The position numbers were made by a program, and so were the translations under genes. Under the pieces are notes generated by a model. That model was not told the origin of the DNA. It worked only from the letters and a program-made list of their open reading frames with translations, and made no database searches. Source: a virus. From it: a stretch of 64,000 bases of DNA. Shown in pieces: positions 36,477 through 50,904 of this stretch; within the stretch, counting starts at the first letter, position 1, and each line of letters starts with the position of its first letter. The stretch spans positions 31,736 to 95,735 of IMG/VR virus record IMGVR_UViG_3300044611_001070. One strand, given 5' to 3'.

Positions 36477-37277
36477 ATGAAAGACAAAAATTTAGGGATT
36501 CCGATTAACCAAGAAGAGATTCAACATTATCTAAAAGATATTCGTAGAATTAAAGTAATGACACCTGACAGAGAAAAAGAACTGGCGGTTAAGATGAAGT
36601 CTGATGACACACCTAAACGTGAGAGAGAAAAAATTGAATCTGAGTTATTAGTTGGTAATTTACGTTTTGTAATTACGGTGGCCAAACAATATCAGAATCA
36701 AGGTTTGGATTTATCTGATCTAATTGCTGAAGGTAATTTGGGTTTGATGAAAGCGATTAAAAACTTTGATTGGCATAAAGATCTACGTTTTATATCATAC
36801 GCAGTTTGGTGGGTTAAACAATCTATCATCCAGTCGTTGAATGATAACGCAAGAACGATCAGACTTCCAGTTAATGTTGTTCAGGACCTACATAAGGCTA
36901 AGAAAGAAATTGCGATTACAGGTAAAGAATTAGAATTAAAGTTTTCATCATTACCGTCTATGATTGATTTGGATATGACAATTAATGATGAAGGTGACAC
37001 ATTGGTTGATATGATTGCTAATCCTAACGCACTTGCTCCTGATGCGGGATTCAACACTAAAGATATGTTAAAGAACAAATTAATATCTTTATTAAATGTG
37101 TTAGATGAAAGAGAAAAAGTGATAATTGAGGATTATTTTGGATTAAGTGGGACACCAAGAACACTTGAAGACATTGGTGGAGATTTTGGTTTAACTAAAG
37201 AACGAGTTAGACAGATTAAGGAAAGAGCCCTTAGAAGATTGAGAAATGAAAGTTCAGAACTATTTGATTACTTATAA
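36477..37277 (+). CDS. Sigma-70 family RNA polymerase sigma factor, RpoD-like
   Basis: A 266-residue protein with regions 1.2 to 4: EEIQHYLKDIRRIKVMTPDRE (1.2), LLVGNLRFVITVAKQYQNQG and DLIAEGNLGLMKAI (2.1-2.2), RFISYAVWWVKQSIIQSLND followed by ARTIRLP (2.3-3.0), and TLEDIGGDFGLTKERVRQIK (4.2 helix-turn-helix). It resembles the small primary sigma of Bacteroidota rather than an ECF or T4 gp55. Region 2.4 residues that read the -10 are conserved. It lacks region 1.1. It probably redirects host RNA polymerase to phage promoters, such as the TATTTAT class, or keeps host-type promoters active. Confidence 0.85.
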   Translation: MKDKNLGIPINQEEIQHYLKDIRRIKVMTPDREKELAVKMKSDDTPKREREKIESELLVGNLRFVITVAKQYQNQGLDLSDLIAEGNLGLMKAIKNFDWHKDLRFISYAVWWVKQSIIQSLNDNARTIRLPVNVVQDLHKAKKEIAITGKELELKFSSLPSMIDLDMTINDEGDTLVDMIANPNALAPDAGFNTKDMLKNKLISLLNVLDEREKVIIEDYFGLSGTPRTLEDIGGDFGLTKERVRQIKERALRRLRNESSELFDYL

Positions 37278-37739: not shown

Positions 37740-37751
37740 TTTAAAAAAGAT

Positions 37752-37782
37752 TTGGCAGATTGAAATAAAATACTTATATTTG
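37752..37782 (+). promoter_or_regulatory. Bacteroidota-type promoter for small RNA (TTG - 20 nt - TATATTTG)
   Basis: TTTGGCAGA (37751-37759) with TTG at 37752-37754 and TATATTTG at 37775-37782. The TTTGGCAGA block is repeated in the minus-strand promoter near 48063. Confidence 0.65.
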
Positions 37783-37787
37783 TAAGA

Positions 37788-37925
37788 CAAACGAAAAGGG
37801 TTGAACCGAGATTACCCTTACAACTCGGCGGAATGAGACACGATGTTCTCTGGGTGAAAATCCTCAATCTTACTCGTGATGTAAGATGAAATTACACTCC
37901 CCCATTGGTACCAGTGGGGGTTTAT
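37788..37925 (+). ncRNA. Putative structured small RNA with 5' pseudoknot
   Basis: About 135 nt between a host-like promoter and a terminator, markedly richer in G+C than the flanking genes and with no sensible reading frame. By eye it folds as follows: AAGGGT (37796-37801) with ACCCTT (37814-37819); CCGAG in that loop (37806-37810) with CTCGG (37824-37828), forming an H-type pseudoknot; GAGACA (37835-37840) with TGTTCTC (37844-37850), one bulge; ATCTTAC (37867-37873) with GTAAGAT (37881-37887); then the terminator. I do not recognise an RNA family. Confidence 0.6.
37899..37924 (+). terminator. Terminator of small RNA, shared with convergent gene
   Basis: CCCCCA (37899-37904) pairs with TGGGGG (37915-37920), followed by TTTATTTT. 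The stop codon of the minus-strand gene is at 37922-37924, so both transcripts end here. Confidence 0.75.
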
Positions 37926-38341
37926 TTTGCGGTAATAACTAGTTGACCTCTACCGACATAAAAATCAGACTTCCGCATAACAGTTTTAATAATAAGATTA
38001 AATTCGTAAGGATTAACTTCTTGTATTAGAATTGGAATATTAAGAAGGTTTGATTCATCTTTAATTACAAACTCAACACCATCATATAACTCACCAATGA
38101 CAATATATTGTACTATATCGTCCTTTACCTTAGATACTGATTTTAATATATCATAATCTCTAATAGCATCACCACCTTCTGAAAAATGTCTAGATTTTTG
38201 TGATTCTGCGTGGGACTTCATTCCAGGTACCTTTCCACGTTGGTATCTTAAATTCATGGTGACAGTAAGGTTTGCTTTGATCTCAGCAATCTTCTTTTCT
38301 AAGATTAAAATTTTACGTATTGATTCTCTAAGTAATGACAT
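37922..38341 (-). CDS. Unknown protein with CTS-like N-terminus
   Basis: A 139-residue protein. The N-terminus MSLLRESIRKILILEKK is a short hydrophobic/basic helix containing I-L-E, a possible T4-type prohead protease site. The rest is a beta-rich domain ending VGRGQLVITAK. The upstream minus-strand TATTTAT motif lies 6 nt before the ATG. Function unknown; head-packaged protein is a hypothesis. Confidence 0.55.
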   Translation of the reverse strand: MSLLRESIRKILILEKKIAEIKANLTVTMNLRYQRGKVPGMKSHAESQKSRHFSEGGDAIRDYDILKSVSKVKDDIVQYIVIGELYDGVEFVIKDESNLLNIPILIQEVNPYEFNLIIKTVMRKSDFYVGRGQLVITAK

Positions 38342-46310: not shown

Positions 46311-47219
46311 ATGAATAATGATAACTATTATGAGGTTTTAGGTGTTGACGAAAAAGCAACACAAGAAGACATCAAGAAGGTATATAGAAACCTAGCAAAA
46401 GAAAATCATCCCGACAAAGGTGGTGATGAAGAAAAGTTTAAGAAGATTACTGAGGCATATGATACGATTGGAGACGCAAATAAACGAAGTCAATACGATA
46501 ATCAACGGAGTAACCCATTCGGTAGTAATTTTGCTGATATGTTTCATTCATTCAATCAACAACGACAAAGACAAGATACTCACACTAGTGTGATTACGGT
46601 AAACATAGGTGTGTTGGATTCATATTTAAGTAGGAACAAACAAATTACATACAAGAGAAAGACTAGTTGTAATGTTTGTAGTGGATCAGGAGGGGAGAAG
46701 AAGGTATGTACTACCTGTAATGGTGCTGGTAGTGTTATGAAACAAATGGGTACGGGTATGTTCATACAAGTTGTTAATATGATGTGTGAGACTTGTTCAG
46801 GTACCGGTAAAATAACTATAAACGCTTGTTATTCATGTAATGGATCGGAGACTAAAGATGAGATGAAAACATTGGATGTTAAAATACCTCATGGGTTAGA
46901 GGATGGTCAATTCATAAGAATGTCAAATGTGGGTGATTTTAAAAATGGTAGATTTGGGGATTTGGTAATAAGGGTTAATTTAGTGGAAGATAATGGTTTC
47001 TTTAAGAACGGACCACATTTAATTTATAACTCTTATTTAAACTATGAAGATATTATAAAGGAGGATATAAACATACCTCATCCTGATGGTGAATTAAATA
47101 TTAAATTACCTAAATTATTTGATTCCTCAAAACCTTTGAGGGTTAAAGGTAAAGGATTTAAGGTAGGTCAAATTGGGGATCTATTAATTAATCGGATTGT
47201 TAGGTTTGAAAGACCTTAA
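46311..47219 (+). CDS. dnaJ: DnaJ-type co-chaperone
   Basis: A 302-residue Hsp40. J-domain 1-65 with the HPD triplet (33-35, ENHPDKGG), a short linker, then a zinc domain with four C-x-x-C modules (CNVCSGSGG, CTTCNGAG, CETCSGTG, CYSCNGSE) and a C-terminal substrate-binding domain ending in LRVKGKGF ... GDLLI. It is shorter than bacterial DnaJ (about 370), missing the G/F-rich linker length and the final dimerisation part. It would recruit host DnaK to phage protein folding or assembly. A phage copy is rare but known. Confidence 0.85.
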   Translation: MNNDNYYEVLGVDEKATQEDIKKVYRNLAKENHPDKGGDEEKFKKITEAYDTIGDANKRSQYDNQRSNPFGSNFADMFHSFNQQRQRQDTHTSVITVNIGVLDSYLSRNKQITYKRKTSCNVCSGSGGEKKVCTTCNGAGSVMKQMGTGMFIQVVNMMCETCSGTGKITINACYSCNGSETKDEMKTLDVKIPHGLEDGQFIRMSNVGDFKNGRFGDLVIRVNLVEDNGFFKNGPHLIYNSYLNYEDIIKEDINIPHPDGELNIKLPKLFDSSKPLRVKGKGFKVGQIGDLLINRIVRFERP

Positions 47220-47377: not shown

Positions 47378-47869
47378 TTATATTATATATAAAATAATAT
47401 CACCTTTTACAATTTTAGTAAAGTTATTATTTTTAAATTGTTCTTTTATTAGAGTATCTCCTGATTTAGTTATAATTATTGTTTTATCATTTTGACCAAT
47501 TGGTAAACTTTTTGGGTGACCAATTGATGTATTAATAGTTAAAAATAAATCACCATTTTTAGATTGGGTAACCCAAACATGGTAATCAACACCTATCATA
47601 TAGTCTTTAATTAAAATAGAATGATCTTTACCTTGTATTTTACCCGTAGAATTAAGTATGTTTATAGATACCTCAACAATAATGTCTAAAATGTCAATAA
47701 TTGATTCATTTATATCCTCAATTGATTGTCTACCATATGATGAATTACTTATCGCTATATTTGAATGGTCATTATAAAAAATGTCAACGTTTATACCACC
47801 AACATCATATCTGTCCAATAACTGTCTTCCCTCAAGGATAAGATTTTTTATCGTATTAAGTAATTTCAT
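47378..47869 (-). CDS. Unknown protein with CTS-like N-terminus
   Basis: 163 residues. I choose Met at 47869: a longer frame to 47896 would place the TATTTATAG promoter-like motif inside the coding sequence. The N-terminus MKLLNTIKNLILEGRQLLDR contains L-I-L-E-G, a textbook T4-type (L/I)-x-E-(A/G) prohead protease site. The rest is a beta-rich domain (NVDIFYNDHSNIAISNSSYG, VDYHVWVTQSKNGDLFLTIN). Function unknown; candidate head-packaged protein. Confidence 0.58.
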   Translation of the reverse strand: MKLLNTIKNLILEGRQLLDRYDVGGINVDIFYNDHSNIAISNSSYGRQSIEDINESIIDILDIIVEVSINILNSTGKIQGKDHSILIKDYMIGVDYHVWVTQSKNGDLFLTINTSIGHPKSLPIGQNDKTIIITKSGDTLIKEQFKNNNFTKIVKGDIILYII

Positions 47870-47884: not shown

Positions 47885-47919
47885 AAGACCCCCCAAAAAT
47901 GAGAGGTCTTAATTTTTTT
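47885..47919 (+). terminator. Hairpin terminator between putative small RNA and minus-strand gene
   Basis: AAGACCCC (47885-47892) pairs with GAGGTCTT (47903-47910), with one G-T pair. The T-run (AATTTTTTT) is on the plus strand; on the minus strand it is followed by ACTATTTATAG, so minus-strand termination is less certain. Confidence 0.6.
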
Positions 47920-48030
47920 CACCGATTAGGTTGAGGTAATTAACCCGTATAGACACACCCTACACCTGGCGTTCAGATTGTTAAATAGGAGTACTGACAT
48001 CCTTGTTTTCAGTAGTGTTACCCACATCAA
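47890..48030 (-). ncRNA. Putative small RNA or short-ORF transcript (minus strand)
   Basis: About 140 nt downstream of a good Bacteroidota-type promoter and ending near a hairpin. The region is richer in G+C than its neighbours. On the RNA, UACUG (48010-48014) can pair with CAGUA (47992-47996), and AGGA in that loop (48000-48003) with UCCU (47987-47990), a pseudoknot layout like the plus-strand RNA at 37788. Alternatively it encodes a 33-residue peptide starting at 48025, but its codon use (AGG, CTA, GCC, GGG) is unlike the phage. Confidence 0.42.
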
Positions 48031-48035
48031 CAATA

Positions 48036-48065
48036 CAAAGATAGTGTTTTTTTTGGTTCTGCCAA
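48036..48065 (-). promoter_or_regulatory. Bacteroidota-type promoter, minus strand (TTG - 19 nt - TATCTTTG)
   Basis: The plus strand reads CAAAGATA at 48036-48043 and CAA at 48063-48065. On the minus strand the -33 block is TTTTGGCAGA, as in the promoter at 37751. Confidence 0.62.
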
Positions 48066-48131
48066 AATATATGTATTTTTTTTTAAAAAACTTCCATTGA
48101 CTGATTACCATAAATATCTTATATTTTATCT

Positions 48132-48971
48132 ATGTTAAGTTATATCGGAGGTAAGAGTAAGATAGGAAAGTGGATAGTCCCTTTCTATGATAAAGATATG
48201 GAAACATATGTTGAAACATTCGGTGGGATGTTTTGGTGTTTCTTTAATATGGATCTAAGTCAGTTCCCAAATCTAAAGAAAGTTGTGTATAATGACTTCA
48301 ACCCACTTAACCATAATTTATTTGAATGTATTAAGAACCCTGAAAGATTATTGGAATCAATCAACGCAATCCCATGTCAACAATTTGGTGTGGAAATTAC
48401 ACCATCAATATATAAAGAACAATTTATCAGCTTTCAGGCTGAAATATTTGATGAAAATTTCAGGGTAGAACCTGGTAATTATGATGTTGCTGCTAAATAT
48501 GCGTATGTTTTAACACAAGTGTTCTCAGGATCTAAACCTGAAAAAAGTTCTTTCATTGACTTAAAAGGTAAGTACAAATCTAAATACTTAACATTCCGAG
48601 ATAAATTAATGAAACCTGATTGGGTTGAACATTTTTTAAGAATAAGTGATGTAGAGAATATGGATTTTGCTGAGGTGATTGAAAAGTATGATTCACCAAC
48701 AACTTACTTCTATGTGGATCCACCATATTGGAAGACTGAAAACTATTATTCTAATCATGATTTTGATAGGGAAGACCACGAAAGACTTTCAAAATCTTTA
48801 ATAAATATGGAAGGTAAATTCAGTTTATCGTACTATGATTTTGAATTATTACACGAATGGTTTCCTGAAGATCAGTACAAATGGGAGAAAAAAGAGTTTG
48901 CTAAAGCGGCAGCGGCAAAAAAGGGAACAAAACAAAACATGGGTGAGGAATTATTAATAATGAATTACTAA
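48132..48971 (+). CDS. DNA adenine methylase, Dam-like (D12 class)
   Basis: A 279-residue protein. MLSYIGGKSKIG (FxGGK-type SAM motif near the N-terminus) and TYFYVDPPYWKTENYY (DPPY, about 196-211) are the alpha-class order of Dam/D12 enzymes such as T4 Dam. It methylates adenine N6 at an unknown site. The last 30 residues are Ala/Lys-rich. No restriction partner is next to it, so it is probably an orphan protective methylase. Confidence 0.75.
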   Translation: MLSYIGGKSKIGKWIVPFYDKDMETYVETFGGMFWCFFNMDLSQFPNLKKVVYNDFNPLNHNLFECIKNPERLLESINAIPCQQFGVEITPSIYKEQFISFQAEIFDENFRVEPGNYDVAAKYAYVLTQVFSGSKPEKSSFIDLKGKYKSKYLTFRDKLMKPDWVEHFLRISDVENMDFAEVIEKYDSPTTYFYVDPPYWKTENYYSNHDFDREDHERLSKSLINMEGKFSLSYYDFELLHEWFPEDQYKWEKKEFAKAAAAKKGTKQNMGEELLIMNY

Positions 48972-49014: not shown

Positions 49015-50904
49015 ATGGAATTAATTAAGGTATTAACATCTGTCATAAAAGAAAACACAAACGGTAAACGTATTGTAAGTGAGGCAATGTCTGAAAAAGT
49101 CATTAAATTTTTAATTGACAAATTTAAACCTACAACTAGAGATACTGAAGAACAAATTACGGCAGTTATTAACGCATTTGAGAAATATAAAAATGGGTTA
49201 CCTCAAGATCAAAGAGATATCACCAAATTAACTTATACTATTGTTAAGAACATTGTTTTATCAAAAGAGATTAAAAAACAAGAAAAAAGTATATTCAAAA
49301 AATATATGGAAGCCAATAAAGGTGCCGACAAAAATGCGGTTAAATTGGCATTACGTAAGTTTTACGAATTGTTTCCAATCCTACCTATAAATCAAAGAGA
49401 CGTTCTTAAAATGCCTTATTTGAAATTGGTTGAGTTTTTACAGAGTAAGTTTAATACTATGTTAACATCAGCGGCACTTAAGAAATTTAAAGATGATAAG
49501 GTTAATGTAACACCTGAACAATTAATTTATTATGTGTCAACATATTTGGATCTATATCATAGGTTACCTGCAAATTTACCACCATTGTTGTTTATGAGTT
49601 TTGATGAACTTGAACATACATTAGATGGTATGGGAGATTTAACTGATGACATTAAAGATACAAAAGATGATTATTCTGACATTGAAACAATATATGATGA
49701 TGATAACTTATTAATCTTCAAACCAAGTGGTAAGGAACAATGTATTAAATTGGCTAACGGAAGAAGTTGGTGTATATCTAAATCAGGTGGTGGTAATATG
49801 TATTACAATTATCGTTTGGGTAATAACTTAACAATTTATTATGTTATTGATAAAGATAAACCATTTGGTGACCTTAACTATTCAGTTGTCATATTAGTTG
49901 AGCCTTATGGCGGAAAACGAATTGCGGATGGTCAAAATATGTCAGGAGGTTATTCAGGTCATAGGAGAGAAGAATGGAGTACAATTGTAAGTAAAGTTCC
50001 AAAATTAAAAGGTAAAGAACATTTGTTTGTTGCGGATCCATTGAGTGCTGCTGAACAAAAAGTACTGAATGACTATAAAAATACTACCATCAATAAAGAT
50101 GCGATTAAAGAACTTGGTAGTGAACAAGCGGCCGAAATGTGGCTTGAGCTTTCAAGTCCTGATTTAACATATAGAAATAATGGTAATGAAATTTATCGTA
50201 ACTTTACCGAAAATCTTAAAAACAAATACTTAGGGTTGGGAATGGACTTGACTGCTGAAATGATCAATGATTCTGAACCTAGCGTTTTGAAATATTATGC
50301 GGCAAGAAAACTTCAAGGGTTGATGACAAAAAGTTTAGGTCAATTGAATGATGCCGATATTGCATTCATCAATAGTCCTATAATGAAAGAAAATAAGAAA
50401 AAATTAAGAGAAAAATTCTCAGGTCAATTAGCCGGAGTTAGTAGTAGTGGTTATGTTGGTCTTGAATATCCAAAAGATGATAACTCCAAGTATGTTGCAT
50501 TATTTGGGTTTGATGATTTCTTTCAACACATCCCAACTAATACAACTATGATCCAAATGGAAAATACAAGTAAAACTCCAATTGCCTTGGATATACCGGA
50601 AAGTATTGGTAAATTAACCGAATTAAAAACATTGATTATTGATAATATGGTTAAGTCAATCCCTGAAAGTATTGGAAATTGTACCAAATTAAAATTTATA
50701 AACTTACCTAATAACCCACAATTGGAAAGTATTCCTGAAGCGTTTGGTGAATTGTATTGTTTGAACTTCTTCTCAACGGAGCATTCAAATCCTAATATGA
50801 GAATACCCGCAAAATTAGAAGAATACATGACAGAAGATGAAGGGTTCTGGTTTATTAATTTCCCTCCTGAATTGAAGAAACATTGTGGACCTATAAGATC
50901 TTAA
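49015..50904 (+). CDS. Large protein with LRR C-terminus and CTS-like N-terminus
   Basis: A 629-residue protein. The N-terminus MELIKVLTSVIKENTN has I-K-E after a hydrophobic helix. Residues about 235-310 form a domain with LANGRSWCISKSGGGNMYY and YYVIDKDKPFGDLNYSVVIL, a pattern I have seen in large T4-like phage proteins but cannot name. Residues about 520-595 are leucine-rich repeats (IPESIGKLTELKTLIIDN ... IPESIGNCTKLKFINLPNN), the LRR type with IPE-(S/A)-IG steps. LRRs in phage proteins are uncommon. It might be a packaged effector that binds a host protein. Confidence 0.6.
   Translation: MELIKVLTSVIKENTNGKRIVSEAMSEKVIKFLIDKFKPTTRDTEEQITAVINAFEKYKNGLPQDQRDITKLTYTIVKNIVLSKEIKKQEKSIFKKYMEANKGADKNAVKLALRKFYELFPILPINQRDVLKMPYLKLVEFLQSKFNTMLTSAALKKFKDDKVNVTPEQLIYYVSTYLDLYHRLPANLPPLLFMSFDELEHTLDGMGDLTDDIKDTKDDYSDIETIYDDDNLLIFKPSGKEQCIKLANGRSWCISKSGGGNMYYNYRLGNNLTIYYVIDKDKPFGDLNYSVVILVEPYGGKRIADGQNMSGGYSGHRREEWSTIVSKVPKLKGKEHLFVADPLSAAEQKVLNDYKNTTINKDAIKELGSEQAAEMWLELSSPDLTYRNNGNEIYRNFTENLKNKYLGLGMDLTAEMINDSEPSVLKYYAARKLQGLMTKSLGQLNDADIAFINSPIMKENKKKLREKFSGQLAGVSSSGYVGLEYPKDDNSKYVALFGFDDFFQHIPTNTTMIQMENTSKTPIALDIPESIGKLTELKTLIIDNMVKSIPESIGNCTKLKFINLPNNPQLESIPEAFGELYCLNFFSTEHSNPNMRIPAKLEEYMTEDEGFWFINFPPELKKHCGPIRS

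What the first reader, a model, noticed from the sequence alone, without database searches (positions are those of the whole stretch)
47885..48065. Second candidate small RNA, minus strand, sharing the same promoter block
The promoter TTTTGGCAGA - 19 nt - TATCTTTG is the near-twin of that at 37751. The 140-nt product can form a 5' pseudoknot of the same topology (UACUG:CAGUA with AGGA:UCCU), although with shorter stems. A pair of related regulatory RNAs is possible. A 33-codon frame also lies inside, so coding is not excluded.
Basis: partly seen in the sequence, partly recalled or inferred. Interest (0 to 1): 0.68.

Follow-up and report, generated by a model that had tools for sequence, protein, structure and literature searches.

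The report
Paired phage pseudoknot RNA and protein
In a large virus that probably infects Bacteroidota bacteria, a small RNA folded into pseudoknot modules turns out to be a new RNA family that almost always sits beside one particular small protein gene and varies together with it, as if the RNA held that protein in check the way an antidote RNA restrains a toxin.

Summary
Window 48029-47885 (minus) is a promoter-to-terminator RNA gene with a Bacteroidota-type promoter. The conserved fold is AGGA:UCCU crossed with GUCAG:CUGAC, then a hairpin with a GGGUG-type loop, then a tail pseudoknot and terminator (84 compensatory cells, shuffles 25.3 +/- 5.8). The 57-nt pseudoknot+hairpin unit is tandemly duplicated in several related phages. 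The 33-codon frame is not conserved. Rfam has no match.

The surprise is a partner. All 19 distinct intact homologues of the 163-aa gene 47869-47378 that I found have this RNA beside them: upstream on the same strand in 14, convergent ~20 nt past the stop in 5. RNA and protein types co-vary (r=0.84; neighbouring Dam r about 0.2), and the RNA persists where the gene is deleted. The protein has no sequence family; its model weakly resembles the T4 RegB endoribonuclease.

Best reading: a type III toxin-antitoxin-like RNA-protein pair, the RNA binding and restraining its protein. Pairing is well supported; the antitoxin role is inferred. The RNA at 37751 shares the architecture and lies convergent to another small gene.

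The parts
48036..48067 (-). host-type (Bacteroidota sigma-ABfr-like) promoter TTTTGGCA..N..TATCTTTG driving the RNA; start of transcription predicted near 48029
   Evidence: the same promoter class stands before 24 of 25 family loci inspected; consensus from PMC7366714
47885..48029 (-). the small RNA gene as a whole (start of transcription predicted, not measured)
   Evidence: sequence; conserved in >20 contigs
47987..48003 (-). pseudoknot stem S1: AGGA 48003-48000 with UCCU 47990-47987
   Evidence: variants AGGA/UCCU, GGGA/UCCC, and in diverged members AAGGGU/ACCCUU, UGAUUG/CAAUCA, AAAUGG/CCAUUU
47971..47998 (-). pseudoknot stem S2: GUCAG 47998-47994 with CUGAAC 47976-47971 (one bulged A here); A-rich loop 3 between
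   Evidence: covaries: GUCAG/CUGAC, GUUAGG/CCUAAC, GUUGGG/CCCAAC
47947..47965 (-). hairpin P3: GUGUAG / CUAUAC with 7-nt loop GGUGUGU
   Evidence: all six pairs show compensatory changes over 23 distinct sequences, loop conserved
47909..47945 (-). tail pseudoknot: GGU 47945-47943 with ACC 47937-47935, UAAUU 47942-47938 with a complementary AAUUA just before the terminator, small hairpin P4 ACC 47931-47929 / GGU 47923-47921 in its loop
   Evidence: P4 covaries (AUU/AAU, ACC/GGU, AUC/GAU); the UUGAU..AUC helix is weaker (72% of cells paired)
47885..47910 (-). intrinsic terminator hairpin AAGACCTCTC-ATTTTT-GGGGGGTCTT
   Evidence: terminator-like hairpins end the family copies inspected
47378..47869 (-). 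partner protein gene, 163 aa (MKLLNTIKNLILEG...), own TATTTATA motif just before the ATG
   Evidence: all 19 distinct intact homologues found lie beside this RNA
48132..48971 (+). divergent neighbour: D12-class DNA adenine methyltransferase (Dam), used as control for linked descent
   Evidence: Pfam PF02086, E 2e-17
37751..37930 (+). related RNA of the same architecture (promoter 37751-37782, RNA to about 37930)
37922..38341 (-). 139-aa gene (MSLLRESIRKILILE...) convergent with the 37751 RNA, the likely counterpart of the partner gene
   Evidence: no profile similarity to the 47869-47378 family (probability 1%)

Best explanation
This is a two-component RNA-protein cassette of large phages. The RNA, transcribed on its own from a host-type promoter, folds into pseudoknot+hairpin modules and acts in trans by binding the ~160-aa protein encoded beside it, restraining it or masking its active site, as antitoxin RNAs of type III toxin-antitoxin systems do. 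Each RNA type fits its own protein subtype, and extra upstream modules of other types would extend protection to other subtypes. The protein, which has a weak RegB/RelE-like endoribonuclease model and an N-terminus resembling T4 capsid-targeting sequences, would be made from its own phage-type promoter and perhaps carried in the virion. Shown here: the conserved fold, tandem modules, independent promoter and terminator, near-constant pairing in two gene arrangements, co-variation. Inferred: direct binding, inhibition, RNase activity, timing, packaging.
For: Fold: 21 named pairs, 89% of cells paired, 84 double-change cells vs 25.3 +/- 5.8 in shuffles and at most 20 in slid controls. Pairing: a search with the protein alone brought in distant homologues that seemed to lack the RNA; the RNA model then found it in every contig with an intact homologue (E 1e-9 to 1e-13), directly adjacent and convergent, or, in G036/G039, upstream of a second intact copy. 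In total 19 of 19 distinct intact protein variants; the two arrangements exclude a mere 5' leader. Of 14 other related contigs or genomes scanned with both models, none has the protein, and only the two with the diverged RNA (G009, G023) give an RNA match better than E 0.1. Co-variation: protein vs last RNA unit r=0.84, with Dam controlled 0.84, permutation p=0.0002; L021 and L023 have identical Dam but proteins 49% and RNAs 77% identical. RNA kept where the gene is a stub (L128, L131). Tandem and mixed modules (L007, L034, L044, L082, L091). Pseudoknot with 1-2-nt loop 1 and A-rich loop 3, like CptI (PMC5086642). Fold: RegB of phage Ec_Makalu_003, probability 0.99, TM 0.43/0.49, E 0.04.
Against: No experiment. 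Adjacency alone makes RNA and protein co-inherit, and L007/L008 share an identical last unit with proteins only 62% identical. The RegB match is weak (TM <0.5, model pLDDT 75), no PDB fold or sequence match, no ToxN. RNA and protein seem to have separate promoters, unlike type III operons. L097/L099 pair the RNA with a different small protein. If the protein is packaged, an intracellular antitoxin is not obviously needed.
Confidence: 0.42

Rival explanations
1. RNA cofactor or cargo: the RNA is the protein's working partner (scaffold, guide, allosteric activator or co-packaged RNA) rather than its inhibitor; protein and RNA act together, perhaps after ejection from the virion.
For: Same pairing and co-variation data; N-terminus resembling T4 capsid targeting; T4 internal proteins are a diverse injected defence set (PMC3012670).
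Against: RNA is kept where the protein gene is deleted (L128, L131), which a mere cofactor would not explain; RNA and protein have promoters of different types, suggesting different timing.
Confidence: 0.18
2. Decoy for a host or defence protein: the modules mimic a host RNA or the antitoxin of a host system, as pseudo-ToxI of phage PhiTE does; the neighbouring protein is a separate anti-defence factor in the same variable spot.
For: Tandem, mixed modules; host-type promoter; cassette present or absent between Dam and the next gene; precedent PMC3475682.
Against: Does not predict that RNA type follows protein subtype, nor the RNA-protein adjacency in two different arrangements and at different sites; one exact unit pattern found no convincing bacterial copy in 84,980 species genomes.
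Confidence: 0.14
3. Trans-acting base-pairing small RNA that regulates phage or host mRNAs.
For: Own promoter and terminator; conserved unpaired stretches in the P3 loop and tail.
Against: Structure is kept while the sequence of stems and much of the loops changes; does not explain linkage with one protein family.
Confidence: 0.12
4. Cis-acting leader: an attenuator or riboswitch for the gene at 47869-47378.
For: In the window and 13 other loci the RNA and its terminator stand just before the gene.
Against: In five loci the RNA is convergent downstream of the gene; in L116/L117 it follows a gene; it persists where the gene is deleted; the gene has its own TATTTATA motif.
Confidence: 0.05
5. 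A short coding sequence (33 codons).
For: Open frame in window, L007, L008, L045, L062.
Against: Start or frame lost in most other members; changes follow base pairing, not codons.
Confidence: 0.02

Closest known systems
Type III toxin-antitoxin systems (ToxIN, CptIN, TenpIN, AbiQ)
   Same: Tandem pseudoknot RNA units, intrinsic terminator, then a small (~160-aa) protein gene; pseudoknot with very short loop 1 and A-rich long loop as in CptI; matched RNA and protein types.
   Different: Protein has no ToxN-family match; units of ~57 nt contain an extra hairpin; gene has its own promoter-like motif; convergent arrangement also occurs; found so far only in phage contigs.
AbiF/RCd22 of a Clostridioides difficile prophage (PMC12373285)
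   Same: Phage-encoded noncoding RNA with two motif copies beside a toxin gene, neutralising it by direct RNA-protein contact.
   Different: AbiF is a Cas13-related protein and its RNA motif (Rfam RF03085) is a hairpin; no Rfam match here.
Pseudo-ToxI RNA of phage PhiTE (PMC3475682)
   Same: Phage-encoded repeated pseudoknot RNA whose repeat number varies.
   Different: PhiTE RNA mimics a bacterial antitoxin and no partner protein in the phage is described.
T4 RegB endoribonuclease (RelE/YoeB-like fold; PMC3014915)
   Same: Best-named structural hit of the partner protein among viral models.
   Different: TM below 0.5, no sequence similarity, active-site residues not compared.
T4 internal proteins with capsid-targeting sequence (PMC3012670)
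   Same: Short N-terminal helix ending in xE, hypervariable small proteins.
   Different: Resemblance by eye only; packaging untested.

Membership tests
Type III toxin-antitoxin system | antitoxin RNA made of tandem pseudoknot repeats | tested here: met
   pseudoknot supported by covariation; two full units in L007, L034, L044, L082, L091, but only one full unit plus tail in the window copy
Type III toxin-antitoxin system | intrinsic terminator between RNA and toxin gene in one operon | tested here: inconclusive
   layout met in 14 loci; convergent in 5 loci, and the gene has its own promoter-like motif
Type III toxin-antitoxin system | toxin of the ToxN family | tested here: not met
   PF13958 finds nothing above cut-off in 18 records; no Pfam family on the partner proteins
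Type III toxin-antitoxin system | protein is toxic and neutralised by direct RNA binding | not testable with these tools
   needs expression and binding assays
RegB/RelE-like endoribonucleases | RegB/RelE fold | tested here: inconclusive
   viral library: RegB hit probability 0.99, TM 0.43/0.49, E 0.04; PDB: no match below E 0.2
any Rfam family | match at gathering score | tested here: not met
   best sub-threshold hits isrJ, MicX, Bacilli-1 are far below gathering
PhiTE-type antitoxin mimic | similar RNA present in bacterial genomes as antitoxin | tested here: inconclusive
   one exact unit pattern in 84,980 species genomes gave two hits that look like chance; diverged copies would be missed
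T4-type internal (capsid-targeted) proteins | capsid-targeting N-terminus and presence in virions | tested here: inconclusive
   N-terminal pattern seen in 4 of 70 window ORFs vs 8 of 325 internal Met sites, not decisive; no proteomics
riboswitch / attenuator | RNA in cis upstream of the gene it controls | tested here: not met
   convergent and gene-less copies

The most novel reading that the evidence does not exclude
Large phages carry hypervariable RNA-antitoxin/virion-toxin cassettes: a RegB-like endoribonuclease packaged in the virion and injected, with an early pseudoknot RNA that protects the phage's own transcripts; extra RNA modules give immunity to the injected toxins of rival phages, much as immunity genes accumulate against bacteriocins.
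Probability: 0.13. Interest if true: 0.93.

Novelty: new variant of a known kind. Interest (0 to 1): 0.74.

Why it matters
Type III-like RNA-protein pairs are known as bacterial or prophage defence modules. A covarying pseudoknot RNA family linked to an uncharacterised, fast-changing protein family in large phages would extend that principle to the phage side and give a clean, testable pair: two genes, each about 500 bp or less, with natural matched and mismatched variants. It also shows that RNA families absent from Rfam can be uncovered through their protein partners.

Tried and rejected
Coding of the 33-codon frame. Cis leader or riboswitch. ToxN-type toxin in these phages. Rfam families, tRNA/tmRNA. 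Close copies in bacterial genomes, plasmids or annotated phages (only chance-level hits). A profile link between the 37922-38341 protein and the partner family (none); link to the L084/L116 protein family only suggestive (E 0.003 for one comparison, probability 10%; BLASTP E 0.001 over 80 residues). I first thought the distant homologues lacked the RNA; one search overturned that. A second RNA model was built without structure and not used.

Full report
1. What is there. The window is part of a 95.7-kb virus contig. Its relatives are large phage contigs, and the Dam gene has homologues in two 634-642-kb uncultured phage genomes. On the minus strand, 48067-48036 is a promoter of the Bacteroidota type (TTTG about -33, TAnnTTTG at -7; PMC7366714), followed by a ~145-nt transcribed region ending in a terminator at 47910-47885. 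The host is inferred from the promoter only.

2. By itself this sequence gives no significant pseudoknot (108 of 300 shuffles do as well). Comparison decides the matter. Close copies were found between Dam and the next gene in many contigs, and an exact pattern of the unit found more. They share AGGA:UCCU and GUCAG:CUGAC, not UACUG:CAGUA. In five loci the 57-nt unit occurs twice in tandem, sometimes with two different unit types.

3. Covariation. On the first alignment of 11 sequences, 29 double-change cells against 11.0 +/- 2.5 in shuffles. A covariance model from these retrieved 24 loci; on that alignment (fitted to the model, so it leans towards it) 84 double-change cells against 25.3 +/- 5.8, and 6-20 in slid controls; all six P3 pairs, three of five S2 pairs and two of four S1 pairs change on both sides. 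The S1 count is lowered by a one-column misalignment in the GGGA members. Members too diverged to align still fold the same way within 55-63 nt: first RNA (37751), L116, L084.

4. Promoter and independence. 24 of 25 family loci inspected have the same promoter class within 5-86 nt of the unit, and the close form of the promoter was found only before this RNA (13 of 13 contigs, which mostly overlap those already known). L097/L099 and the 37751-type copies of L134/135/138/139 lie directly after a stop codon without it. The 37751-type RNA is almost identical across phages whose flanking protein is 81-83% identical.

5. The partner. The gene after the terminator encodes a ~160-aa protein of one family (30-83% identity) with invariant R47 and D89 and near-invariant T114, S115, H118, P119. 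A protein-only search found distant homologues at other sites. Apart from L156 and L146, none seemed to have the RNA upstream, but the RNA model found it in all of their contigs with an intact gene, 17-25 nt beyond the stop codon and convergent. Contigs with only a gene stub at the first site (G036, G037, G039) have the RNA ~9 kb away before a second, intact copy (checked in G036 and G039). Counting distinct variants, 14 upstream plus 5 convergent, 19 of 19. This count pools loci found by different routes; the unbiased part is the set brought in by the protein alone. Two loci keep the RNA with a deleted gene (L128, L131). One small contig (L165) has a stub and no RNA.

6. Co-variation. Over 13 loci the identity of the protein and of the last RNA unit correlate at 0.84; each correlates with Dam at only 0.20-0.25; partial correlation 0.84, p=0.0002. 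This shows the two move as one cassette. It does not by itself prove contact, since they are adjacent.

7. What the protein may be. No Pfam, PADLOC or PDB sequence match that means anything, and only scattered weak single-member PHROG hits. AlphaFold2 models reach pLDDT 73-75. Foldseek finds nothing in PDB below E 0.2. Among viral models the named hit is RegB site-specific RNA endonuclease (probability 0.99, TM 0.43/0.49, rmsd 3.7 over 105 columns, E 0.04). RegB shares its fold with the RelE and YoeB toxins (PMC3014915). I treat this as a lead.

8. Mechanism. Layout, tandem pseudoknots, matched types, and RNA persistence after gene loss fit an antitoxin-like RNA that binds the protein, as in type III systems (PMC5086642) and AbiF/RCd22 (PMC12373285). 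Binding, toxicity and RNase activity are inferred. The defining ToxN family was tested and not met, so I do not file it as a type III system; I say it works like one, with moderate confidence.

9. The first RNA (37751-37930) has the same architecture and is convergent with a 139-aa gene (37922-38341) that shows no detectable similarity to the partner family. L116/L117 and L084 carry diverged RNAs beside ~170-aa genes with similar N-termini. So the RNA architecture may serve several small-protein families.

10. Limits. Contigs are mostly fragments; the collections overlap; the start of transcription is predicted; the capsid-targeting reading of the N-terminus is a resemblance recalled from T4 and not tested beyond a weak pattern count.

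Noticed in passing
upstream of ATG at 1363, 18869, 20221, 47869(-), 49015, 53723(-), 54869(-), 61333, 63239(-): A TATTTAT(A) motif 8-25 nt before many start codons looks like a phage-type (late) promoter.
   Followed up: partly
L116 about 1610-1740; L117 corresponding: Directly after the diverged RNA and its terminator comes a second structured stretch with its own strong terminator (CCCATC..GATGGG, CGTTA..TAACG, GGGGGGAATTCGCTACTCCCCC); possibly another small RNA.
   Followed up: no
window 38341-37922(-), 42602, 47869(-), 49015: Several unrelated genes begin with a short hydrophobic helix ending in xE (MSLLRESIRKILILE, MELIKVLTSVIKE, MKLLNTIKNLILE), resembling T4 capsid-targeting sequences.
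   Followed up: partly
L165-L169, L128, L131: Stubs of the partner gene (conserved C-terminus NNFTKIVKGDIIIY) persist beside Dam or elsewhere, showing repeated internal deletion.
   Followed up: yes
L014-L019: Closely related phages (Dam up to 100% identical) have Dam followed directly by the next small gene, i.e. the RNA-protein cassette is absent.
   Followed up: partly
window 46311-47219, 36477-37277, 49015-50904: DnaJ homologue, phage sigma factor, and a leucine-rich-repeat protein with a capsid-targeting-like N-terminus.
   Followed up: no
L182 (RNA 802-901), L184 (RNA 877-976): A 59-codon frame runs through the whole RNA in these two relatives only, probably by chance.
   Followed up: no
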